Positions 5,512 through 48,536 of a stretch of 64,000 nt of DNA are shown here, piece by piece. Within the stretch, counting starts at the first letter, position 1, and each line of letters opens with the position of its first letter. Position numbers and translations under genes: made by a program. The stretch is from Lytechinus variegatus (lineage: Eukaryota > Echinodermata > Echinoidea > Temnopleuroida > Toxopneustidae): NCBI RefSeq assembly GCF_018143015.1, contig NC_054741.1, positions 52,157,048 through 52,221,047 on the forward strand, read 5' to 3'. The notes below the pieces were generated by a model that was given only the letters and a program-made list of their open reading frames with translations, was not told where the DNA came from and made no database searches.

Positions 5512-5671
5512 GACCTGTTAAACAAAGGTTATCAATTAATCGCTAAGTGGAATGGCCTATCAAGACCAACGTTGCATTCGCATTTTGCTTAGTTGCCTGA
5601 CTAGGTAGGAACCAATCAGTATTGTTCCTTGAAAATTAGTGATTAATCGCTAATCTCTGTGGTACGGGGCC
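5512..5671. mobile_element. MITE, GGGnCCCGTAACA family
   Basis: Starts CAGGGACCTGTTAAACAAAG with ATCAATTAATCGCTAAG, and ends GATTAATCGCTAATCTCTG then GGTACGGGGCC. The inverted ends and inner ATTAATCGCTAA blocks mark it as a relative of the copy at 4703. No coding capacity. Confidence 0.55.
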
Positions 5672-6932
5672 ATAATCAAGTCATGGAAATAAAGGATTTG
5701 GTATTATTAAAATTTAAGCTGCATGATGATAAATAACTGATTATTTTTTAAAGATTTTTTTTTTTTACAATCTCATCTAATTGGTGTTGTCTCAAAGCAT
5801 AAATGGCAGGGGGGCACCCCATGATTTTTCAAGTTTGGTAGAAAAAAGAGAACGGGAGGGGGATGTCACCTTTGGTTTGTCTCCCCCCCCATCAATTTAC
5901 CATGGCCCCATCACTTTCTACCGGTAATTTACAGGAATATTCATGTGATTGATTTGTAAAATAGATGACACTGTCAGGCTAAAGATGATGTTACAAGAAA
6001 TATAATGGTATTTATTTGTAATTGATTGAAAATTTCTTTTGTAAATTCGAAACTGCAGAACCAAAAGCTTCTTTGTTTTCAAATCTACCCCAAAAATTAT
6101 GAAATACACAAAATAGAACTTTGATTACATTTTCAGTGCTAAGCTTGTTTGATTTTTTTTTCAATTCAAGTCAACCCCTTGCTGGGCATGCAGGGCTTGA
6201 CCTCTATTCATACCTGCAGGCCCCAATTTGAATTTGCATTTTGAAGATGAAATAATATAGATTAATGAAAATTTATGGTTTTTGAAATATTTTACTTGAT
6301 CAGGCTCTCATTAAATTACCAAATCTCTGATATTAAGGAAAAATTCCCATATGTGTGTAATGTGCATACATTTATCATGTACATATGTAATGAATACATC
6401 AAAATTATGAAGAAGATATTTATGTACTAAAAGTTTAAAAGACTCTAGTTTATATATCATACAAGTGCAGTTTTTATGACAATAATATATGGTGTTTTTG
6501 TTATTGTACCATATTTGATCTTATCATTCCATTTTTCCTCAGAAATAATCTCATATTTTATCCGATTGTGATTGAATTGAAAAAAAATGAATTGATTATA
6601 GTGTGTAAATAGACTAATAGATAATTGAATTGCATACTTTATTGGATGTGTGAATGAAATGAAGGTTATAAATAAATAATGGTTAAAAAAGGAACAGAGG
6701 CATTCTATCTTGGTTTATTGGTTGTTAGAAGACGAAAGAGACTGTCCCGTTACCTTGCCCCACCACACAAAATTTGATATGTCAAATATATTATCGTGAT
6801 TGGGATGTACGTCAACATAAAAGTATTCAGACGTGATGAACTGTGTGTATAAGACTCGTGTGAAAGGGGAGATCAAGGAGTACATAACAGCTGTGACAGA
6901 GATCACTCATGATGTAAACTGCACATATACAA

Positions 6933-7399: not shown

Positions 7400-7598
7400 G
7401 TTGATTTTTACCTGATTGCTAGGAAAGCACGAATGCTTGTAAGCAAGCAACTAGAGGACCGATGGGTTAAGGTCCTCTCTGAGGGACCTAGTAATGAGGG
7501 TAAATGCCTTACCAAAGGGCACTAGCGCACCAAGTGGGATTCGAACCCGGGTCACCGGAATCCAAACCCCCTGCTCTACCAACCGAGCTATTGCGCCT
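7400..7598 (-). mobile_element. tRNA-derived SINE
   Basis: On the minus strand a tRNA-like head starts near 7598: A box TAGCTCGGTTGGTAGAGC, B box GGGTTCGAATCCCAC. It is followed by a non-tRNA body (GTGCCCTTTGGTAAGGCATT and onward). Acceptor-arm and anticodon-arm pairing is imperfect, so this is not a working tRNA gene. Head and body together mark a SINE transcribed by RNA polymerase III. The tail boundary and target duplication are uncertain. Confidence 0.8.
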
Positions 7599-12164: not shown

Positions 12165-12640
12165 CGTATACATTCGTAATTCCGAAGCTTCGTTATTCCG
12201 AAGGTTCAGATATTCCAAAGGTTCGTTAATCCGAAAGCGAAATAAGGTTCGTTATTCCGAAGGTTCGACAATCCGAAAACGGAATGAGGTTTGTTGTTCC
12301 GAAGGTTCGTTAATCCGAAAACGAAATAAGGTTCGTTGTTCCGAAGGTTCGTTTATCCGAAAACGAAATGAGGTTCGTTGTTCATTTCGTTTTCGGACTA
12401 ACGAACCTTCGGAATTACGAACCTCATTTCGTTTTCGGATTAACAAACCTTCGGAATTACGAACCTCATTCCGTTTTCGGACTAATGAACCTTTGGAATT
12501 ACGACTCTCATTTCCTTTTCGGATTAACGAACCCTTTTTCGTTTTCGGATTAACGAACATCGAGGTATAGGCAATTTATGTGTTTCGGAATTACGAACCT
12601 TCGGAATAAAGAACCTTTGGAATTACTAAGTGTAACCCAT
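12165..12640. repeat. Foldback of repeated GGTTCGTTATTCCGAA units
   Basis: Units of about 40 bp built from AAGGTTCGTTAATCCGAAAA and variants run one way up to about 12382. They then run as the reverse complement (TTTTCGGATTAACGAACCTT) to about 12600, making a large imperfect hairpin. Open frames in it (RKRNEVRNSEG repeats) are by-products of the repetition. It probably represents a foldback or MITE-type element 200 bp downstream of the ATG8 stop. Confidence 0.65.
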
Positions 12641-14169: not shown

Positions 14170-14465
14170 AAGAGTACGAATCAGATTGAAAGGAGATGAA
14201 AGAGGAAAGAAGGGGGAAGGAAGGAAGAGGAAGGAGGAAGAGGAAGGAGGAGGAAGAGAAGAAGAAGAAGAAGAAAGAGGAAGGAGGAAGAGAAGAAGAA
14301 AGGAGGAAGGAGGAGGAGGGAGAGAAGAAGAAGAAGAAGAAAGAGGAAGAAGGAGGAAAGGAAGAGAAGAAGAAGAAGGAGTAAGAGGAGAGGGGGGAGA
14401 AGGAAGAGGAAGAAGGAGGAATATGAATAGGAAGAAGAGGAAGGGGAGAAGGAAGAGGAAGAAAC
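14170..14465. repeat. Polypurine (GGA/GAA) tract
   Basis: Almost uninterrupted G and A on the plus strand with irregular GGAAGA, GAAGAA and GGAGGA words. All frames through it give Glu/Arg/Lys or Ser/Leu/Phe low-complexity translations that are not genes. It separates the 3' ends of two convergent genes. Confidence 0.9.
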
Positions 14466-35180: not shown

Positions 35181-35809
35181 TATTGACATAAAATACATAT
35201 TTTTTTTATTTTCCAAGTCTTAATCTCACCTTACTTTATTCACGCATATTCCTCCCCTTATTTTTCCTTTCTTGTTTCCTCCTCTCTTTCCCCCTTCTTT
35301 TTTTCCCTTTTTTCTTTCTTTTCCCCTTTTTCTTTTTTTTTTGCTCCGCCAATAGGGGGCCCAGGCCCCTCGGGCCCCCTGGATGCGCCTATGTACATCA
35401 GATTATCCAAAATTAAATCTCGTGCTTCGCGCTCACAAAGTATGAATTAGGCTTTGTGAGATATACTTGAACTTGTTTGTAAGAATGAAAGACGTATATG
35501 TATAAAACTCGGCACCCCACTCTGTAGACTTGTTAAGAGGTTGAACGCTGCATTTTTGAGTACAAATGTCCTACTTGGCACAAATGTTCCTTGAGTCAAA
35601 AGAAAAAGATTCATCCAAAGAGACACGCTGTATCTATGCAAATAAGCAAGTAATTTGCATAAATTTGCATATTATGTCGATATAGGAAAAACAAGTAATT
35701 CAGAATAAATATTTCACCAGAACTGCCCTAAAATTTGAAATAAAGACTTAGGGTAAGACAGGGAAGAAAACTGTCATAAAATAATTGGGCTATCCTTGTT
35801 TATTATTAC

Positions 35810-38303
35810 CAGGGTGACCAGATTTCACAAAATGAAATACGGGACAATCGACAAAAAAAAGATCAACAAAGAAGGCTACACAGTGTTACACCCAGTGGCG
35901 TACCTTGAGTCACGGCATTGGGGCACCAGCAAAAATTTTGATTCACCTAGTGAGCGCGCGAAGTACGCTCAGTTGCTAGGTATACTGACCTATAGAGACA
36001 TTTTAAGGACAGTGTCATTAAACGAATATGTATGTTACTGATCACATAATGCGAGCGCGAAGCGCGAGCTGAAATTTTTGTATATTATTGACCCCAAACG
36101 GACACTATATTGTAGGAATCTATTAAGAGTATACATATCTCACCATAATAATCTAATGTGAGTACCAAGTGCTTGCTGATTTATTTAGAATTACATGCAT
36201 TCAAACACATAAAGCACCTGCAGTCATTGTAATCATGATTAACATGCACTTCTCACTAATCAAATATTGGGAGCGCGAAGCGCGAGTTAAAAATTAGGAA
36301 ATTCACACCTGAAGAGGGGCATTCTAAGGCTTGTTTGTAGGAATTCACGTAGTCCATGCGTATTTCACTAACCAAATGATGCGAGCTGAAATTTTTTATA
36401 TTCAGATCAGAAAAAGGGACATTTTAGGGACTGGTTTTAGGAATTCATGAAGAGCGGACATATCTCACTAATCCACTAATGCGAACGTAAGCGCGGACGT
36501 GAAATGTTTGATATTAAGACCTTAAAATGATATGTCACTGCATAAAACAATAATAATTCGTAGTGCGAGGAAATATATTTGGTGTATATTGACTTGAAAA
36601 CGGGAGGTTTTAGTACAACAGGATTATATATCTCGTTAAACAGACAATGCGAGCATCAGGAACAATGAAGACATAGGCCCTGAGCAAATTATGTTTCTTA
36701 AAGTTATAATATATTTTTTATTTTTATGTAATATAACATAATAATATAACATAATTAACAATGATTTTTCCTTCCCACTACGTTTCTCTCACTTTCTCCC
36801 TCTTTTTCTCTTTTTCCCCCGTTTTTTTTTTGGGCCAGCCGATTGGGGGTCACGTGCCCACCATGCCCCCCGTAGTTACGCCACTGGTTACACCTGTGAA
36901 AAATTATAAAGAATTGGAAGGGTGGGTGAACGAAAGAATGAAGGAGAGAAAGAAAAGACGAAAGAAAAGAGATGAATTGAGAAAAAAAGAAAGAAAAATT
37001 AAGGGGAAAATGAAGGAAAAATGAAAAAAGAATAAAAGAAAGTTAGAATAAAAGAAAGAATAAAAGAGCGAAAAATGTTACCGTCATTCTTTGAATTGAA
37101 TACAGAAAGAAAGAAAGAAAGAAAAAGAAAGGAATGGCAAAAGAATACAATGTGTGAGAGACAACAAAAAGGAGAGAAAGAAAAAAGTAAGAAAAATGAG
37201 GAGGAAAGAAAGAATGAAAGAAAAATGTTTCCTTCTTTCTTTGAAAGAAAGAAGCAAACAGAGAAAGAAGGGAGGAGGGAAGGAAGGAATTAAGAGAGGG
37301 AGGGAGATAAAGAATAAGGGAAAGAATTAGAAGGAAAAGTAAAATGAAGAATGAAAGAAAGGAGGAAAGAGAGGGAGAAAGAATTTAAGTGAGGAGGGAA
37401 TGAAAACATAATGGAAGAAGAGAAAGAATTTAAAGAAAGAGGAGAGGAAGGGAGGGGGGAGAAAAAAGTTTTAAGAAAGAAAGAATATAAAAAGGGAAAT
37501 TTGATAAAGAAGACGGGTAAGAAAAAGGGGGAAAGAAAGAAAAATGAACAGAGAGAGAAAGGATCAGGAAAGACAAATAGGAAATAAAGATAGATGGAAC
37601 AAAAACGGGCAAGCAGGAAGGATAGAAGGATGAAGAAAGAAGGATAGAAAAGAAAGAAAGAGGAAAAAAGTTCAAACTTCAAGCAAAAAAATCCAATCAT
37701 CTAACAAAAATCATGATATTTGGTGTTTTTCAAATATAATTTTAGAATTAAAAATAATGTTTTAGAAATGAATAAAATTTCAAAGTGATTTTTTTTACTT
37801 AAAAATTAGATGAAACATCGCGGCATCATACACAACAAGACTCAAAACGAAAGCTGAAACAACTAGATCTAGATATGAAAACTCAATAACTTAATTGTTC
37901 CTCCGAGATTACATCTCCAAATCAGTAATATGAGAACCCATAATATAGTCATACAAATTTCCCGCCGATTTTGTGATTATTTTGGCATGTTTGGTGGAGA
38001 GAATCTGCTCAGATCCTACATGCCTAGCTAGTAGCCTGCCACACAATGGCAGGAGGCCAGTTAGTTTACGATGTATTGGGTTAGCAAGAAAATCACCGTA
38101 GAACTTGCAAATCGTTTTTATTGTTGTCTCTGCTTCGTCATCTGTTGGTTATTTTGATGAAAATTCGTCACTTTTAAATATATTTTGTTCAATATTCTGA
38201 AATACGGGACAAATAGGCGTCCCGGGAAGGGTTTGTCGGGACGCCGGGACAAAGAAGCAAAATACGGGACAATCCCGGAAATACGGGACGTCTGGTCACC
38301 CTG
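35810..38303. mobile_element. hAT-type nonautonomous element, copy 2
   Basis: Target duplication ATTATTAC (35802-35809 and 38304-38311). Ends CAGGGTGACCAGATTTCAC and (right, reverse complement) CAGGGTGACCAGACGTCCCG. Same family as 32131-33526 but inverted and longer, because a second hAT element is nested at 35893-36886. 36900-37680 is an almost pure purine tract on this strand. The matching arm at 48210-48270 shows the uninterrupted target. Confidence 0.92.
35893..36886. mobile_element. Nested hAT-type element with GCGAAGCGCGAGC subrepeats
   Basis: Target duplication GTTACACC at 35885-35892 and 36887-36894. Ends CAGTGGCGTACC and GTAGTTACGCCACTG. The sister copy at 32131-33526 reads straight through this site, which confirms the insertion. 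Inside, units of roughly 110 bp each start with a variant of GCGAGCGCGAAGCGCGAGCT and continue GAAATTTTT and GGGACATTTTA. No transposase. Confidence 0.9.
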
Positions 38304-39240
38304 ATTATTACCTAATTTACATAAATTATGCAAATTACAATTAAAAAAAGAGTATTTTTTTCAAGAATCCTGAACTGTTTTAGAAATAACGGCAATTAAT
38401 ACGAAATGTCAACATTCTACATGAAAGAGAATATATTAGCGAAAACATCGATATATTTCATGACAGTATTAGTGTCTTAATTTGCTTAGAAAGAGGGCAA
38501 ATATGTCAAAATGTATGACGTGATATTGCGCTAAAACGAGACCAAAACATCCTCTATGTCACAGTCACACTCACGAATCGGACAATAAAGCGATCAATGG
38601 TATGTCATTCGAGATAACACATTCTCAACACAATAGCTTCCATCGGCTTCTCGTATCGCTTTTGTTGGTGTGTCTGCCACATCGTAATCTGTGATACACA
38701 CGGGCAAAATGCATTTCGGTATCGGTAAAACACTATTAATTTTGTTTTATTTGTTTCTCTTGGAAAATTTACAGGAGACATTGCTTTGCAGGTTACTGCT
38801 TAAATGAAGCTCTGGCACATGAATCATGACGAATGTAACCTACCTCAATCCATATTTTAATTTTGTTAAAATATATATCTTTTGGAGACCCCAAAGTGGC
38901 AAAACTGCATTTCCCCGGCATTCCCGCTACTTTACAAAACCAGTTTGACTTGTATTATCTATCAGATGTTGTTTGAAGGTTTGCATGGTGGCATGTACAA
39001 TTGCTGATGTGGTTTACGGTACACCATGTGGAGTGTTATAGAAGCAGTGGATAGAAGAAGAGAGGAAGTGGATAGGCGAGAAAGTGGAGATTTTGAGAAT
39101 AGAGTATTCTTTCTTGAGAATAGTCCTGAAAAGGACTGTAAACCAGAAGGAATGTTGAGTGAGAACAGCTTGAGTAGTAGAGCTGATGAGGAGATGCTGG
39201 CTTGCGTCGGCGGGTAGAGATGATGAGTAGTAGAGAGACT

Positions 39241-39274
39241 CGACGTTTCGGACAGGTTGACTGTCCGTCTTCAG
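39241..39274 (-). ncRNA. Hammerhead-like motif in the PLE 3' region, left arm
   Basis: Mirror copy of the motif at 44539-44572: CTGAAGA, a 7-bp stem CGGACAG/CTGTCCG, then AAACGTC. Hammerhead ribozyme motifs are known from Penelope-like elements. Core fit is discussed under the right-arm copy. Confidence 0.4.
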
Positions 39275-39493
39275 GAGTGAGTGTTCGCTCGGCGTGCGGC
39301 GGTACTTATGGCGTGCGTGCGGACGTGGGGGAAAGCTCTAGGCCGGCGGTCACGGCGGGTTGACGTCGTAGGTGGCGCTCTGTGTGTGGGTCGGCGGTTT
39401 TTGGCGGGAAACGAGTGGGCGTCGTATGCGGACGTGGTGAGTAGACGGCGGCGTGAGTTACGGCGGCGTGTGTGTGTGTCGGCGGTGTGTACA

Positions 39494-40200
39494 TCAATGG
39501 TGGCGTTCTGTGCGTGTTGGTCGGCGGACTCGTCGGGTGAGCTTCGGCGGGAGTGAGTGGGTGGCCTGGTGTACGGATGAGGTGTTGGGTCGTCGGCGGA
39601 GGTTGTAGCGAGGTGTCGGTGGCGGTGGTGTGTGTGTCGGCGGAGTCCCTGGTTGAGTTGGTGATGCAATCGGACTGCTGTGTTGGGTAGGAGGGCTCGG
39701 TGGAGTGACGGTGGACGGCTGGTTGTTTGTGGATTGGTTAGAAGTTTGATGGTGACGTAGGATTGGGTGCCAGATGCTGTTGATGTGGAGGCCAGGGTCT
39801 TGAGGCACAGTGTTGTGTTGATGTATCTCAATGGCTTCCCTGACCCTTCTGGTATTCCAGTGCCGGATGTTGGTGATTAGGTGGCTCCTTTCCCATTCTA
39901 TGCGGTGATTCTCTTGTTGTGCGTGCTTGACGATGGCGGATCGGTCCCAGTCGCTGCGTCGGTGGTGGGTCTTGTGTTCCTTGAGTCTGGTGTCGAAGTC
40001 TCGGCCGGTTTCCCCAATGTAGACTTTACCGCAGTCGCAGGGGATCTTGTAGACGCCTGGTTGTTTGTTGGATGGGTGCTTGTCCTTATGAGAGTGAAGG
40101 ATGGAGTGTAGTTTTCGAGAGGATTGGTGTCTGACGAGGATGTTGGCAGAGTGAAGGATGCGTTGTAGTCGGTGTGAAGTCTTGCCGATGTAGGGTAGTA
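39494..40200 (-). CDS. GIY-YIG endonuclease part of the left PLE copy
   Basis: Mirror image of 43613-44319. It encodes VYKIPCDCGKVYIGETGRDF, in which the Y and YIG elements of the GIY-YIG nuclease are visible. This is followed by TRLKEHK and the usual Penelope closing phrase GLHINSIWHPIL. It lies in a different frame from the reverse transcriptase part. It would nick target DNA to prime reverse transcription. Not a host gene. Confidence 0.8.
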
Positions 40201-41952
40201 CTATGGTGGCGACGGGCTTGGTTTCGGATGGGTTTTCGGTGCTGTCGGTGCTGGGTTGATGGTTGGTTGAGTCTTGATCCTTCTTCTGGGGTAGTGGTTG
40301 ATGGTGGTGAGTGCATTGGTCACGTGCTTGAGTTCTTGATGTAAGTGTGCCTTGTCGCTGAGTTGGTGGGCTCGTCTGATGAGTGTGTTGGCGACTGATT
40401 GGTGGATGGACGGGTGGTGGTGTGAGCGGAAGTTGAGGTAGCGGTCTGTGTGGGTAGGTTTCCGGTACACCTGGTGAGATGGGAATCCAGACGGTGTCTT
40501 AGTGATGAGAACGTCTAGAAATGGAATTGAGTTGTCGCGTTGGGTCTCCATGGTGAACTTGATGCTGGGGTGCTGGTTGTTGAGGTGGTTGAGAAACTGG
40601 TGAAGGTCGGGTGTGCTGTGCGGCCAGATGACAAAGGTGTCGTCGACGTAGCGGAGCCAGAGTGAAGGAGGTTTGTCCGCAGTCTTGAGTGCTTGGTGCT
40701 CAAAGTGTTCCATGAAGATGTTAGCGATGATTGGTGAGAGAGGTGACCCCATGGCTGCTCCTTGTAGTTGTTTGTAGTAGTTGTTGCGCCATTTGAAGGA
40801 GTTGGAGTTGAGACAGGTGAGGAGGAGGTCGTGGATCTGGTCTGGTGTGAGATTGGTTCTGGATGCTAGGTCTGAGTCGGTGATCAGGCGTTGCTTGATG
40901 ATGTCACATGCTTGGTCTACAGGTACGCTGGTGAAGAGGGAGACGACATCAAAGCTGACGAGTGTGTCGGAGGGCCGGATCTTGGTTTTGGAGATGACGT
41001 CTATGAAGTGCTTGGAGTTGGTGACATGGTGCTGGGTCTGGCCTACGAGTGGTTGGAGGATGTTGGCCAGATGGCGTGCTGTGTTGTAGCAGGGTGACCC
41101 ACGAGTGGAGATGATAGGGCGGAGAGGAGTGTTAGGCTTGTGTATCTTGGGTTGTCCGAATAAGATAGGTGACTTGGCTGAAGACGATCTGAGTTGGAAG
41201 TAGAGTGCCTTGGGTAGTGCATCGGATCGGTGTAGGGTCAGCAGTTGTTGGTTGATTTTCCTTTCGTTGGCCTGAGTTGGGTCTCTGTTGAGTTTGGAGT
41301 AGGTGTCCTTGTCTTGGAGAATCTCTTCGATCTTGTCATCGTATGCGTCTTGGTCCATGATAACGGTGGCGTTGCCCTTGTCAGCCTGAAGGATGTGAAT
41401 GGCTTGGTTACGTCGGAGGTCCTGGATAGCAGAGCGTTCGTCTTTGGATAGGTTCTGTTTAGGTGGCTTGGCGTCGGAGAGGGCATTGGTTACCTTGAGT
41501 CTGATTGCGTTGGCGGCCTCTTTGGAGAGAAAGCGGAGCTTGGGTTCGACTTGCTGTACGATGTCGGAGAAAGGGATCTTCTTAGGAGCTACGGCGAAGT
41601 TGAGTCCGAGAGAGAGTACTTTGTGTTCGGCTTGGGTAAGTTGGTGTCGGCTAAGGTTGATTACGGTATCCTTGGTTGCTTCGGTCGAAGGTTGTTGGTT
41701 GGCTTGCGTAGGCTTGCGGGAGTAGAGTCGGTCGAACTTGTTGATTTGCTTGAGCTTGGTGGACTGGAAGGTTTTGCGAGATGTGTAGTCGTTGAATGCC
41801 TGAACTTTATCTAGATCGTCTGGTTTGAGTCGTCGGCTAAGTTGAGTTTGAGTAGAAGAGATGCTTCTAATCCTGCACCAAGCCAGCTTAGACCTCACTC
41901 GCGAACGTATCGCACGCACCCGACACCAACTCCACGATCTAAACTCAAGCAT
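40201..41952 (-). CDS. Penelope-like reverse transcriptase, left arm
   Basis: A 583-codon frame. Penelope hallmarks in order: ADKGNATVIMD, FGQPKIHKPNTPLRPI, SFDVVSLFTSVPVDQA, GAAMGSPLSPIIANIFMEHF, the catalytic YVDDT, IPFLDVLI and VYRKPTHTDRYL. The first 28 codons are antisense of the 80-bp centre and inner edge and are not native. True homology starts at SISSTQTQLSRR. It differs from the right-arm copy by hardly any residue (IISTRG versus IFSTRG). It is 5'-truncated, so the natural N-terminus and promoter are missing. The reading frame is otherwise open, implying a young insertion. Confidence 0.9.
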   Translation of the reverse strand: MLEFRSWSWCRVRAIRSRVRSKLAWCRIRSISSTQTQLSRRLKPDDLDKVQAFNDYTSRKTFQSTKLKQINKFDRLYSRKPTQANQQPSTEATKDTVINLSRHQLTQAEHKVLSLGLNFAVAPKKIPFSDIVQQVEPKLRFLSKEAANAIRLKVTNALSDAKPPKQNLSKDERSAIQDLRRNQAIHILQADKGNATVIMDQDAYDDKIEEILQDKDTYSKLNRDPTQANERKINQQLLTLHRSDALPKALYFQLRSSSAKSPILFGQPKIHKPNTPLRPIISTRGSPCYNTARHLANILQPLVGQTQHHVTNSKHFIDVISKTKIRPSDTLVSFDVVSLFTSVPVDQACDIIKQRLITDSDLASRTNLTPDQIHDLLLTCLNSNSFKWRNNYYKQLQGAAMGSPLSPIIANIFMEHFEHQALKTADKPPSLWLRYVDDTFVIWPHSTPDLHQFLNHLNNQHPSIKFTMETQRDNSIPFLDVLITKTPSGFPSHQVYRKPTHTDRYLNFRSHHHPSIHQSVANTLIRRAHQLSDKAHLHQELKHVTNALTTINHYPRRRIKTQPTINPAPTAPKTHPKPSPSPP

Positions 41953-43612
41953 CTCTTCTACTCAAACTCAACTTAGCCGACGACTCAAACCAGACGATCT
42001 AGATAAAGTTCAGGCATTCAACGACTACACATCTCGCAAAACCTTCCAGTCCACCAAGCTCAAGCAAATCAACAAGTTCGACCGACTCTACTCCCGCAAG
42101 CCTACGCAAGCCAACCAACAACCTTCGACCGAAGCAACCAAGGATACCGTAATCAACCTTAGCCGACACCAACTTACCCAAGCCGAACACAAAGTACTCT
42201 CTCTCGGACTCAACTTCGCCGTAGCTCCTAAGAAGATCCCTTTCTCCGACATCGTACAGCAAGTCGAACCCAAGCTCCGCTTTCTCTCCAAAGAGGCCGC
42301 CAACGCAATCAGACTCAAGGTAACCAATGCCCTCTCCGACGCCAAGCCACCTAAACAGAACCTATCCAAAGACGAACGCTCTGCTATCCAGGACCTCCGA
42401 CGTAACCAAGCCATTCACATCCTTCAGGCTGACAAGGGCAACGCCACCGTTATCATGGACCAAGACGCATACGATGACAAGATCGAAGAGATTCTCCAAG
42501 ACAAGGACACCTACTCCAAACTCAACAGAGACCCAACTCAGGCCAACGAAAGGAAAATCAACCAACAACTGCTGACCCTACACCGATCCGATGCACTACC
42601 CAAGGCACTCTACTTCCAACTCAGATCGTCTTCAGCCAAGTCACCTATCTTATTCGGACAACCCAAGATACACAAGCCTAACACTCCTCTCCGCCCTATC
42701 TTCTCCACTCGTGGGTCACCCTGCTACAACACAGCACGCCATCTGGCCAACATCCTCCAACCACTTGTAGGCCAGACCCAGCACCATGTCACCAACTCCA
42801 AGCACTTCATAGACGTCATCTCCAAAACCAAGATCCGGCCCTCCGACACACTCGTCAGCTTTGATGTCGTCTCCCTCTTCACCAGCGTACCTGTAGACCA
42901 AGCATGTGACATCATCAAGCAACGCCTGATCACCGACTCAGACCTAGCATCCAGAACCAATCTCACACCAGACCAGATCCACGACCTCCTCCTCACCTGT
43001 CTCAACTCCAACTCCTTCAAATGGCGCAACAACTACTACAAACAACTACAAGGAGCAGCCATGGGGTCACCTCTCTCACCAATCATCGCTAACATCTTCA
43101 TGGAACACTTTGAGCACCAAGCACTCAAGACTGCGGACAAACCTCCTTCACTCTGGCTCCGCTACGTCGACGACACCTTTGTCATCTGGCCGCACAGCAC
43201 ACCCGACCTTCACCAGTTTCTCAACCACCTCAACAACCAGCACCCCAGCATCAAGTTCACCATGGAGACCCAACGCGACAACTCAATTCCATTTCTAGAC
43301 GTTCTCATCACTAAGACACCGTCTGGATTCCCATCTCACCAGGTGTACCGGAAACCTACCCACACAGACCGCTACCTCAACTTCCGCTCACACCACCACC
43401 CGTCCATCCACCAATCAGTCGCCAACACACTCATCAGACGAGCCCACCAACTCAGCGACAAGGCACACTTACATCAAGAACTCAAGCACGTGACCAATGC
43501 ACTCACCACCATCAACCACTACCCCAGAAGAAGGATCAAGACTCAACCAACCATCAACCCAGCACCGACAGCACCGAAAACCCATCCGAAACCAAGCCCG
43601 TCGCCACCATAG
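41861..43612 (+). CDS. Penelope-like reverse transcriptase, right arm
   Basis: A 583-codon frame with the fingers/palm motifs of Penelope-like elements: ADKGN near residue 189, QPKIHKPN near 265, SFDVVSLFT near 332, GAAMGSPLSP near 396, YVDDT near 434, IPFLDVLI near 475. Unlike the left copy its N-terminal residues (ASLDLTRERIARTRHQLHD) come from the 80-bp centre and look like genuine element protein. So this copy extends at least 80 bp further 5' than its partner. The natural start is still missing. The GIY-YIG part follows downstream in another frame, as in the left arm. Confidence 0.92.
   Translation: MLLILHQASLDLTRERIARTRHQLHDLNSSISSTQTQLSRRLKPDDLDKVQAFNDYTSRKTFQSTKLKQINKFDRLYSRKPTQANQQPSTEATKDTVINLSRHQLTQAEHKVLSLGLNFAVAPKKIPFSDIVQQVEPKLRFLSKEAANAIRLKVTNALSDAKPPKQNLSKDERSAIQDLRRNQAIHILQADKGNATVIMDQDAYDDKIEEILQDKDTYSKLNRDPTQANERKINQQLLTLHRSDALPKALYFQLRSSSAKSPILFGQPKIHKPNTPLRPIFSTRGSPCYNTARHLANILQPLVGQTQHHVTNSKHFIDVISKTKIRPSDTLVSFDVVSLFTSVPVDQACDIIKQRLITDSDLASRTNLTPDQIHDLLLTCLNSNSFKWRNNYYKQLQGAAMGSPLSPIIANIFMEHFEHQALKTADKPPSLWLRYVDDTFVIWPHSTPDLHQFLNHLNNQHPSIKFTMETQRDNSIPFLDVLITKTPSGFPSHQVYRKPTHTDRYLNFRSHHHPSIHQSVANTLIRRAHQLSDKAHLHQELKHVTNALTTINHYPRRRIKTQPTINPAPTAPKTHPKPSPSPP
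41867..41946 (+). other. Asymmetric centre of the PLE palindrome
   Basis: Eighty bases with no inverted partner. Read on the plus strand they continue the right-arm reverse transcriptase frame, so they belong to the right copy. The left copy was truncated at 41866. This rules out a perfect mirror and marks where the two copies join head to head. Confidence 0.85.
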
Positions 43613-44319
43613 TACTACCCTACATCGGCAAGACTTCACACCGACTACAACGCATCCTTCACTCTGCCAACATCCTCGTCAGACACCAATCCTCTCGAAA
43701 ACTACACTCCATCCTTCACTCTCATAAGGACAAGCACCCATCCAACAAACAACCAGGCGTCTACAAGATCCCCTGCGACTGCGGTAAAGTCTACATTGGG
43801 GAAACCGGCCGAGACTTCGACACCAGACTCAAGGAACACAAGACCCACCACCGACGCAGCGACTGGGACCGATCCGCCATCGTCAAGCACGCACAACAAG
43901 AGAATCACCGCATAGAATGGGAAAGGAGCCACCTAATCACCAACATCCGGCACTGGAATACCAGAAGGGTCAGGGAAGCCATTGAGATACATCAACACAA
44001 CACTGTGCCTCAAGACCCTGGCCTCCACATCAACAGCATCTGGCACCCAATCCTACGTCACCATCAAACTTCTAACCAATCCACAAACAACCAGCCGTCC
44101 ACCGTCACTCCACCGAGCCCTCCTACCCAACACAGCAGTCCGATTGCATCACCAACTCAACCAGGGACTCCGCCGACACACACACCACCGCCACCGACAC
44201 CTCGCTACAACCTCCGCCGACGACCCAACACCTCATCCGTACACCAGGCCACCCACTCACTCCCGCCGAAGCTCACCCGACGAGTCCGCCGACCAACACG
44301 CACAGAACGCCACCATTGA
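43613..44319 (+). CDS. GIY-YIG endonuclease part of the right PLE copy
   Basis: The frame contains TIVLPYIGKTSHRLQRI, then VYKIPCDCGKVYIGETGRDF at about 43756-43815, TRLKEHKTHHRRSDWDRS, and the Penelope closing phrase GLHINSIWHPIL near 44020. A basic, Pro/Ser/Thr-rich extension of about 90 residues ends at ERHH. GIY-YIG nucleases supply the target nick for canonical Penelope-like elements. Same content as the mirror at 39494-40200. Confidence 0.85.
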
Positions 44320-44538
44320 TGTACACACCGCCGACACACACACACGCCGCCGTAACTCACGCCGCCGTCTACTCACCACGTCCGCATACGACGCCCACTC
44401 GTTTCCCGCCAAAAACCGCCGACCCACACACAGAGCGCCACCTACGACGTCAACCCGCCGTGACCGCCGGCCTAGAGCTTTCCCCCACGTCCGCACGCAC
44501 GCCATAAGTACCGCCGCACGCCGAGCGAACACTCACTC

Positions 44539-44572
44539 CTGAAGACGGACAGTCAACCTGTCCGAAACGTCG
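44539..44572 (+). ncRNA. Hammerhead-like motif in the PLE 3' region, right arm
   Basis: CTGAAGA (44539-44545) matches the CUGANGA half of the hammerhead core. Next come stem CGGACAG, loop TCAAC, stem CTGTCCG, then AAACGTCG. If the last stem G is counted as core, GAAA is present. If not, the core lacks one G. Penelope-like elements are known to carry minimal hammerheads in their terminal regions. Activity cannot be judged here. Confidence 0.4.
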
Positions 44573-45041
44573 AGTCTCTCTACTACTCATCATCTCTACT
44601 CGCCGACGCAAGCCAGCATCTCCTCATCAGCTCTACTACTCAAGCTGTTCTCACTCAACATTCCTTCTGGTTTACAGTCCTTTTCAGGACTATTCTCAAG
44701 AAAGAATACTCTATTCTCAAAATCTCCACTTTCTCGCCTATCCACTTCCTCTCTTCTTCTATCCACTGCTTCTATAACACTCCACATGGTGTACCGTAAA
44801 CCACATCAGCAATTGTATTATCTAATTGGAAAACACAGATGTATGAGACATCAGACAACATGATTCTTGAAAAAAAAATATTTTTGTTTATTTAAGCCAA
44901 CGGGAGCCTTTCGAATTTACCCCATCCCCTCTCCGTATTTCGACTTTAAATACAAAAAATATCTTGTTTTAAAGCCATCGGCAAGGCAAATTGCGTTTTT
45001 TTTGTTATAATAAAGCAACTTTTATATCTTACATTCATCAT

Positions 45042-47168: not shown

Positions 47169-48536
47169 TACAAACAAAAGTAATCTTTTAAGAGTTCTAA
47201 AGACAATAAACTATTTTTGAATACATAAAACCAAAAGGGAAAAGGGTATCCTAGGCATGCTCCTGTTGGGTTATAGCCTGTACTGTGCTAGAACATTATT
47301 ACAAACTGCAGAACAATAATAATAATAATAACATTAATAATATTATTAATATAGATAAATATGAAATATAGATATAAAAGTTGCTTTATTATACCAAAAA
47401 CGCAACTTGCCTTGCCGGTGGTTTTTAAACACGATATTTTTTTTATTTAGTGTCGAAATACAGAGAGAGGATGGAGTAAATTCGGAGGGCTCCCGTGGAC
47501 GTATAGGCTTAAATAATAAAAAAAAACTATCTTCAGGAAACATGTTCACTGATGTCTCATACATCTGTCTTTTCCAAGTCGATAATACAAGTCAAACTGG
47601 TTTTGTAAAGTAGCGAGAATGCCGCGGGGAATGCAGTTTTGCCACTTCGGGGTCTCCAAAAGACATAAATTTTAACAAAGTTAAAATATGGATTGATGTG
47701 GGGTACATTCGTCATGATTCATGTGCCAGAGCTTCATTTAAGCAGTAACCTGCAAAGCAATATCTCCTGTAAATTTTCCAAGAGAAACCAATTAGAAACA
47801 AATAAAACAAAATTAATAGTGTTTTACCGATACCGAAATGCATTTTGCCCGTATGTATCACAGATTACGGTGTGGCAGACACACCAACAAAAGCGATACG
47901 AGAAGCCGATGGAAGCTACTGTGTTGAGATTGTGTTATCTCGAATGACATACCATTGATCGCTTTATTGTCCGATTCGTGAGTGTGACTGTGACATAGAG
48001 GATGTTTTGGTCTCGTTTTAGCGCAATATCACGTCATACATTTTGACATATTTGCCCTCTTTCTAAGCAAATTAAGACACTAATACTGTCATGAAGCATA
48101 TCAATGTTTTCGCTAATATATTCTCTTTCATGTAGAATGTTGACATTTTGTATTAATTGCTGTTATTTATAAAAACAGTTCAGGATTCTTGAAAGAATAC
48201 TCTGTTTTAAATTATAATTTGCATAATTTATGTAAATTAGGTAATAATAAACAAGGATATCCCAATTATCTTATGACAGTTTTCTTCCCTGTCTTACCCT
48301 AAGTCTTTATTTCAAATTTTAGGGCAGTTCTGTTGAAATATTTATTCTGAATTACTTGTTTTTACTATATCGACATAATATGCAAATTTATGCAAATTAC
48401 TTGCTTATTTGCATAGATACAGCGTGTCTCTTTGGATGAATCCTTTTCTTTTGACTCAAGGAACATTTGTACCAAGTGAGACATTTGTACTAAAAAATGC
48501 AGCGGTAAGCCTTTTTTTGCAGTTAACAAGTCAACC
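47169..48536 (+). repeat. Right arm of the old inverted repeat (uninterrupted)
   Basis: Reverse complement of the split left arm. It carries the uninterrupted equivalents of both insertion sites: AGGTAATAATAAACAAGG (hAT site, near 48240) and TCGATAATACAAGTC (Penelope site, near 47580). No gene recognised. Confidence 0.85.

What the first reader, a model, noticed from the sequence alone, without database searches (positions are those of the whole stretch)
38951..44824. A palindromic pair of Penelope-like elements inserted as one unit with a single 11-bp target duplication
Seen: two near-identical copies of reverse transcriptase plus GIY-YIG endonuclease in head-to-head orientation, and TGTATTATCTA directly repeated on both outer flanks. 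Known: Penelope-like elements often leave 5'-truncated, inverted or tandem partial copies. Inferred: both copies were laid down in one integration event, for example a second template copied from the opposite target strand, giving a large hairpin-forming locus with two convergent nuclease/RT reading frames.
Basis: partly seen in the sequence, partly recalled or inferred. Interest (0 to 1): 0.8.

Follow-up and report, generated by a model that had tools for sequence, protein, structure and literature searches.

The report
Two-armed Penelope retroelement insertion
The locus is one insertion of a Penelope-like retroelement whose two mirror-image arms were most likely copied from both cut ends of the DNA, and dozens of relatives in the same genome carry the same asymmetric end signature, which gives good evidence on how this poorly understood class of elements inserts.

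Summary
Window 38962-44813 is two head-to-head arms of an endonuclease-bearing Penelope-like element (PLE), 2871 nt long and differing at 3 of 2810 compared positions, inside one 11-12-bp target duplication. A paralogous empty site in the same window (47169-48248, minus strand) carries the target once, so this is one insertion. The reading frames diverge, not converge; both copies are 5'-truncated and frame-broken. Head-to-head pairing is usual for this family here: 38 of 42 close neighbours among listed 3' ends. Of 42 insertions read, 27 show both outer ends; each of the 27 has one untailed end and one with a ~35-nt 3' tail (26 regular, 1 irregular). By position, 34 of 38 pairs are one-of-each; 3 show no tail mark, 1 two. 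The tail is on the shorter arm in 9 of 26, against snap-back copying. Best explanation: both strands are cut, each 3' end primes reverse transcription of RNA from one source at one of two adjacent start sites, and the cDNAs are end-joined. Inverted pLTRs, an optional tail and cutting plus extension of both strands are published; the near-strict one-of-each rule is what this adds.

The parts
38951..38961 (.). target-site duplication, left copy (TGTATTATCTA)
38962..38999 (-). 3' tail of the left arm (reverse transcription started at the outer of two adjacent start sites); in tandem copies elsewhere it is continuous with the start of the ORF
38962..41866 (-). tailed arm: 5'-truncated PLE copy, antisense on the + strand
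41867..44813 (+). untailed arm: 5'-truncated PLE copy, ends at CAGCAAT; its first 3 nt are not element sequence (full units align from the 4th)
41866..41867 (.). central join of the two 5'-truncated cDNAs (at most 3 nt of filler)
40201..41961 (-). left RT reading frame (stop to stop), N-terminally truncated
39494..40498 (-). left GIY-YIG reading frame, out of frame with RT
41852..43612 (+). right RT reading frame (RVT_1, E 4.4e-11), N-terminally truncated
43315..44319 (+). right GIY-YIG reading frame (PF01541, E 1.8e-5), out of frame with RT
44535..44575 (+). hammerhead-like motif: CUGAAGA core, stems I and II in the predicted fold; mirror copy at 39238-39278 (-). Not reported by Rfam at E up to 1, and not more stable than shuffles
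44533..44547 (+). zone in which 15 of 48 measured arm 5' ends of the family fall (r2667-2681); begins TCACT; candidate RNA 5' end
44814..44824 (.). target-site duplication, right copy (TGTATTATCTA)
47169..48248 (-). paralogous empty site: matches both flanks without the insert; single target copy TGTATTATCGA at about 47579-47589

Best explanation
A single insertion of a Penelope-like element made by two-sided target-primed reverse transcription. Step 1 (inferred from symmetric cut-site bias and the TSD; shown in vitro for another PLE by PMC11167929): the element's GIY-YIG enzyme cuts both target strands about 12 nt apart, leaving two 3' ends that each end in the future TSD. Step 2 (inferred): each 3' end primes reverse transcription of sense element RNA, so both arms begin with the element's 3' end at the target and grow inward. 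Step 3 (shown as a pattern): one reaction starts at the outer site, keeping the ~35-nt tail, and the other at the inner site (CAGCAAT), regardless of which arm ends up longer. Step 4 (inferred): each cDNA stops at its own point, often near a probable RNA 5' end, and the two ends are joined by microhomology or with filler, giving head-to-head arms inside one TSD. Both arms copy RNA from the same source copy, possibly the same molecule.
For: One TSD around the whole unit and a paralogous empty site. TSD of at least 8 exact nt in 23 of 27 insertions, most often 12 nt (12 of 27); 2 more have 13 nt with one mismatch. All 27 insertions with both outer ends read have one untailed and one tailed end (26 regular); 10 regular ones come from loci not chosen by a tail-reaching pattern. 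By position, 34 of 38 head-to-head pairs are one-of-each against 18.9 expected for independent ends, P = 2.8e-7. 1410 three-prime ends against 754 tails genome-wide. Tail on the shorter arm in 9, on the longer in 9, similar lengths in 8 of 26. Opposite arms share private alleles in 5 of 7 insertions compared (W, C12, C4, L018, L031). Joins: 10 of 27 overlap by 1-5 nt, 7 blunt, 7 with 1-5 nt filler, 3 longer. GTT reading outward at the cut on 8 of 23 tailed sides and 7 of 23 untailed sides, 1.5 expected per side (motif noticed after looking). The outer start site aligns with the in-vitro RT start zone (+111 to +118) of Anolis PAc (PMC11167929).
Against: Of 38 pairs by position, 3 show no tail mark and 1 shows two; the last is L006, where the inner mark is a tandem junction. 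15 of the 42 insertions with letters were left out of the 27: 5 with a far end unread or broken, 6 one-armed or with only a fragment of a second arm, 4 with a partner too short or not found. At least 3 one-armed insertions with a TSD exist (L012, L015 untailed; L019 tailed), so two arms are not obligatory. L020 lacks a TSD and its tailed end runs about 26 nt past the usual start; L026 has only 6 matching nt. 16 of the 27 were picked by a pattern that mostly hits tailed ends, so they cannot show tail-less pairs. C14 and C7 arms share no private allele, and arm-to-arm gene conversion could also produce shared alleles. Three insertions (L041, L043, L049) share one central join that a local snap-back would also give. 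The tail region folds no better than shuffles, unlike the stem-loop reported for PAc. PMC11167929 saw no difference in start site between top and bottom strands.
Confidence: 0.8

Rival explanations
1. Self-priming: one cDNA (or an antisense RNA) folds back at its end and copies itself, giving a head-to-head palindrome. Proposed for Adineta Penelope elements in PMC3846280.
For: Explains the orientation, arms sharing alleles, and palindromic joins such as the one shared by L041, L043 and L049.
Against: A folded-back copy cannot carry a tail that its template lacks, yet the tail is on the shorter arm in 9 of 26 (8 of 25 without irregular L020), and it cannot know the inner start site, at which the untailed end stops within a few nt in all 27.
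Confidence: 0.1
2. Two separate insertions, the second landing beside or inside the first.
For: None found beyond the general abundance of the family.
Against: No internal TSD at the centre; one TSD outside; paralogous empty site without either copy; the same 5'-to-5' arrangement in 38 of 42 close neighbours; private alleles shared by the arms.
Confidence: 0.02
3. Assembly or library artefact (fold-back read) that created the mirror copy.
For: Near-identical arms; no reads were available to inspect.
Against: The arms differ in tail, 5' end and 3 substitutions, TSD copies flank the unit, and dozens of other loci have unequal arms of the same design.
Confidence: 0.02
4. Two independent RT reactions with no coupling; the one-of-each pattern is mostly sampling.
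For: 16 of 27 read insertions were chosen through tailed ends; lone arms of both kinds exist; PMC11167929 reports both start sites on both strands.
Against: In the position test 34 of 38 pairs are one-of-each against 18.9 expected; no two-tailed outer pair among the 27 read.
Confidence: 0.1

Closest known systems
Poseidon of Anolis carolinensis, PAc (Penelope/Poseidon PLEs), PMC11167929
   Same: RT plus GIY-YIG in one ORF in a full-length copy, tandem pLTR units, tail between two adjacent RT start sites, homologous outer start region; PAc cleaves and extends both strands in vitro (paper, parts 1-3 of 4 read).
   Different: In PAc start sites showed no strand difference and the product structure in genomes was not counted; here paired insertions carry one start of each kind. 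No stable stem-loop is predicted for the tail here.
Penelope elements of Adineta vaga, PMC3846280
   Same: Inverted pLTR head-to-head, 8-10-bp TSDs, ~31-bp tail on one of the inverted pLTRs, TCACT Inr-like motif in the pLTR (passages and Discussion read).
   Different: There the inverted part is usually pLTR-sized and the authors favour self-priming on an antisense template; here the window's inverted arm covers RT and EN, and the tail evidence speaks against self-priming.
L1 twin priming (PMC12016303, passages read)
   Same: Two cDNAs of opposite orientation primed from both strands, TSD, joined inside the insertion.
   Different: In L1 it is seen in about 20% of insertions, the inverted cDNA is primed inside the element and the shared stretch has a median of 12 bp; here both arms start within about 40 nt of each other at the 3' end and share up to 2.87 kb.

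Membership tests
Endonuclease-bearing Penelope-like element | RT and C-terminal GIY-YIG domain in a single ORF | tested here: met
   Full-length copy L003: 883-aa ORF, RVT_1 333-523, GIY-YIG 696-736. In the window copies the two lie in different frames.
Endonuclease-bearing Penelope-like element | tandem/partial tandem units forming pseudo-LTRs | tested here: met
   Units of period about 3157 at C14 and two C3 loci, partial upstream units at others
Endonuclease-bearing Penelope-like element | inverted copy, 30-40-bp tail on one end, short TSD | tested here: met
Endonuclease-bearing Penelope-like element | telomerase-like RT phylogeny and clade (Poseidon, Neptune, Penelope) | not tested
   No tree made; PDB search hit only weak RT matches (best E 6.1e-4)
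Endonuclease-bearing Penelope-like element | hammerhead ribozyme in the pLTR | tested here: inconclusive
   CUGAAGA core with stems I and II in the predicted fold, but z -1.0 and 30 of 200 shuffles fold as well; Rfam lists no hammerhead at E up to 1
L1-type twin priming product | two opposite cDNAs inside one TSD | tested here: met
L1-type twin priming product | inverted cDNA primed inside the element, little shared sequence | tested here: not met
   Both arms start at the element's 3' end; window arms share 2871 nt
Foldback/TIR DNA transposon | fixed terminal inverted repeats | tested here: not met
   Arm lengths vary from about 45 nt to several kb and differ within one insertion; the ORFs encode RT and GIY-YIG

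The most novel reading that the evidence does not exclude
PLE integration is an intrinsically two-handed and asymmetric reaction: one complex cuts both strands, runs reverse transcription from both 3' ends on RNA of one source (perhaps one molecule), and its two active sites occupy the two adjacent start registers in a mutually exclusive way, so each completed insertion is built with exactly one tailed and one untailed end. The 'optional' tail and the inverted pLTR of PLEs would then be two signs of one step.
Probability: 0.55. Interest if true: 0.75.

Novelty: new member of a known kind. Interest (0 to 1): 0.6.

Why it matters
How Penelope-like elements insert is largely open: the genomic structure is well described and one enzyme has been studied in vitro, but why insertions carry inverted parts and an 'optional' tail was left to competing ideas. 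Here one family with over a thousand 3' ends gives a testable rule: one tailed and one untailed end per two-armed insertion, independent of arm length. It favours two-sided priming over self-priming and predicts coupling between two RT reactions, which an existing in-vitro system could check. A paired-end mechanism also predicts palindromes, which matter for genome stability and assembly.

Tried and rejected
Rejected: convergent frames; two separate insertions; fold-back artefact; DNA transposon with terminal inverted repeats; snap-back copying as source of the arms (tail on the shorter arm). Considered and left open: whether both arms come from one RNA molecule or two RNAs of one locus; shared alleles cannot tell, and conversion between arms is possible. 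Rfam gave no hammerhead (only a sub-threshold mir-1017). Folding of the tail region gave no stable stem-loop. PDB search added little. Papers not held: PMC8557442, PMC4209133, PMC2377424, so they were not seen. I did not find the one-of-each rule in print in 8 answered searches of this library; the older subscription papers on Penelope were not seen and may contain it. That the adjacent Penelope literature speaks of a 34-bp extension was recalled and then found as a 30-40-bp 'tail' in the papers read. No structure prediction was made.

Full report
What is there. The window (G000:C2:52157048-52221047 of an 869.6-Mb genome) holds an inverted repeat with arms 38996-41866 and 41947-44817. Each arm is a 5'-truncated copy of an element with RT and GIY-YIG domains (right copy). 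Both 5' ends meet in the middle and both 3' ends face outward, so the frames diverge. TGTATTATCTA flanks the unit once on each side. The left arm has 38 nt more at its 3' end, the right arm 80 nt more at its 5' end. The arms differ at 3 of 2810 positions.

One insertion. The flanks are themselves repeated in the window: the reverse complement of 47169-48248 aligns with the left flank (94% over 669 columns) and the right flank (80% over 464) with no insert, and carries the target once as TGTATTATCGA, one mismatch from the duplicated form. This is a paralogue, not an allele, but it shows the uninterrupted site.

Family. A full-length copy elsewhere (L003) has an 883-aa ORF with both domains; units occur in tandem with a period of about 3157. 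The extra 38 nt of the left arm are, in tandem units, continuous with the start of the ORF. This agrees with the 'tail' of PLEs: in PMC11167929 (parts 1-3 of 4 read) the Anolis enzyme PAc starts reverse transcription at two adjacent sites inside the RNA, the tail being the stretch between, and it cleaves and extends both target strands. Our outer start region aligns with PAc at its start zone (+111 to +118; score 83 against a maximum of 63.5 in 200 letter shuffles).

Pairs are the rule. brought 50 loci, which merge into 42 insertions (22 found by an RT query, 20 by a 29-base 3'-end pattern in order of position). In the 20, blastn finds both arms in 16; L035 has an untailed remnant of a few nt. 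For 27 of the 42 both outer ends could be read. The 15 left out: L003, L004, C14 (far end not fetched), L006 (right end disrupted), L030 (left end not read), L012, L015, L019, L021, L023, C3b (one-armed or with only a fragment of a second arm), L035, L036, L038, L045 (partner very short or not found).

One tailed, one untailed. In 26 of the 27 one arm ends at CAGCAA(T), give or take a few nt, and the other at the tail end; in L020 the tailed end runs about 26 nt further and no TSD is seen. No two-tailed and no tail-less pair was seen. 16 of the 27 come from the tail-leaning pattern, so the unbiased part is the 10 regular ones of 11. A second test used positions only: exact matches of a common 3' pattern and of two tail patterns over C1 and the first 33.9 Mb of C2 (lists capped at 100 places). 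Of 42 neighbouring ends within 8 kb, 38 are -+ (2 ++, 1 +-, 1 --). Of these 38 pairs, 34 have one tail, 3 none and 1 two; independence predicts 18.9 (P = 2.8e-7). The two-tailed one is L006, whose inner mark is a tandem junction. The 3 without mark may have mutated tails or be real exceptions. Some of these pairs are the same loci as L031-L050. Genome-wide counts, 1410 three-prime ends (up to 2 mismatches) and 754 tails (up to 3), agree with about one tail per pair plus tandem junctions.

Target sites. An exact TSD of at least 8 nt is found in 23 of 27; the commonest length is 12 (12 of 27), then 13 (5); L031 and L032 have 13 nt with one mismatch; L020 and L026 have no convincing one. GTT read outward at the cut occurs on 8 of 23 tailed and 7 of 23 untailed sides, 1.5 expected on each. 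The motif was noticed in the data, so the P values (5.5e-5, 4.2e-4) are optimistic. The same bias on both sides suggests that one enzyme made both cuts.

Templates and joins. Opposite arms share alleles absent from the other insertions in the alignment in 5 of 7 insertions (window, C12, C4, L018, L031; none in C14 and C7). The window arms share a 4-nt deletion and one substitution; their nearest other copy (L006) is almost as close (4 differences in 2347 against 3 in 2810). Differences between opposite arms for which both alleles occur in other insertions are rare: 1 in the window pair, 1 in one C14 comparison. So the arms usually come from one source, though conversion between arms is not excluded. 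Joins show 1-5 nt overlap in 10 of 27, none in 7, 1-5 nt filler in 7, more in 3 (lengths typed). Three insertions (L041, L043, L049) share one join, GTCTTCACTCCTGAAGAC, as expected if both cDNAs end at the same RNA 5' end and pair by TCA/TGA, or if one end snaps back locally.

Why not snap-back for the arms. If one arm were a DNA copy of the other, the tail could sit only on the first, at least as long, arm. It is on the shorter arm in 9 of 26, the longer in 9, and lengths are similar in 8 (without L020 8 of 25). PMC3846280 (passages and Discussion read) preferred self-priming on an antisense template because of head-to-head palindromes; the tail data here speak for two priming events on sense RNA.

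RNA 5' end. 15 of 48 measured arm 5' ends lie in r2667-2681, window 44533-44547, which begins TCACT, the Inr-like motif that PMC3846280 describes in an Adineta pLTR, just before a hammerhead-like motif. I read these as run-off at the RNA 5' end after starting at the 5'-proximal of two pLTRs in one RNA; this is inference. One-armed insertions with TSD (L012 and L015 untailed, L019 tailed) show that either reaction can occur without a visible partner.

Standing. The locus is an ordinary, well-preserved PLE insertion with unusually long equal arms: a new member of a known kind. The rule over many insertions is the part of interest.

Noticed in passing
window 35535-38915 and 47169-48515: Imperfect inverted duplication of host sequence around the insertion (381 nt at 97%, 276 nt at 95%, 180 nt at 92%, others), which supplies the paralogous empty site.
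   Followed up: partly
window 12201-12536: Two arrays of a 42-bp repeat in opposite orientation, 10 nt apart.
   Followed up: no
window 14207-14463: GA-rich low-complexity tract with strong strand skew; a pyrimidine-rich tract at about 32.8-33.5 kb.
   Followed up: no
window 5595-5682 (+) and 7525-7596 (-): ARAGORN (bacterial settings) calls a tRNA-Thr and a tRNA-Pro; not checked further.
   Followed up: no
G000 C14:3229493-3238489, C3:15819753-15824567, C3:44922972-44927786: Full-length units in direct tandem, within one arm; C14 has three and then an opposite arm. Units of one array share private alleles at C14 and C3b, not at C3a.
   Followed up: partly
G000 C8:25083348-25085797 and 25089237-25091677: Two head-to-head pairs 5.9 kb apart with nearly the same coordinates in the element (94-95% to the query), apparently a local duplication of one older insertion (positions only).
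   Followed up: no
L041, L043, L049 (centre of each insertion): Three separate insertions share the same palindromic join GTCTTCACTCCTGAAGAC.
   Followed up: partly
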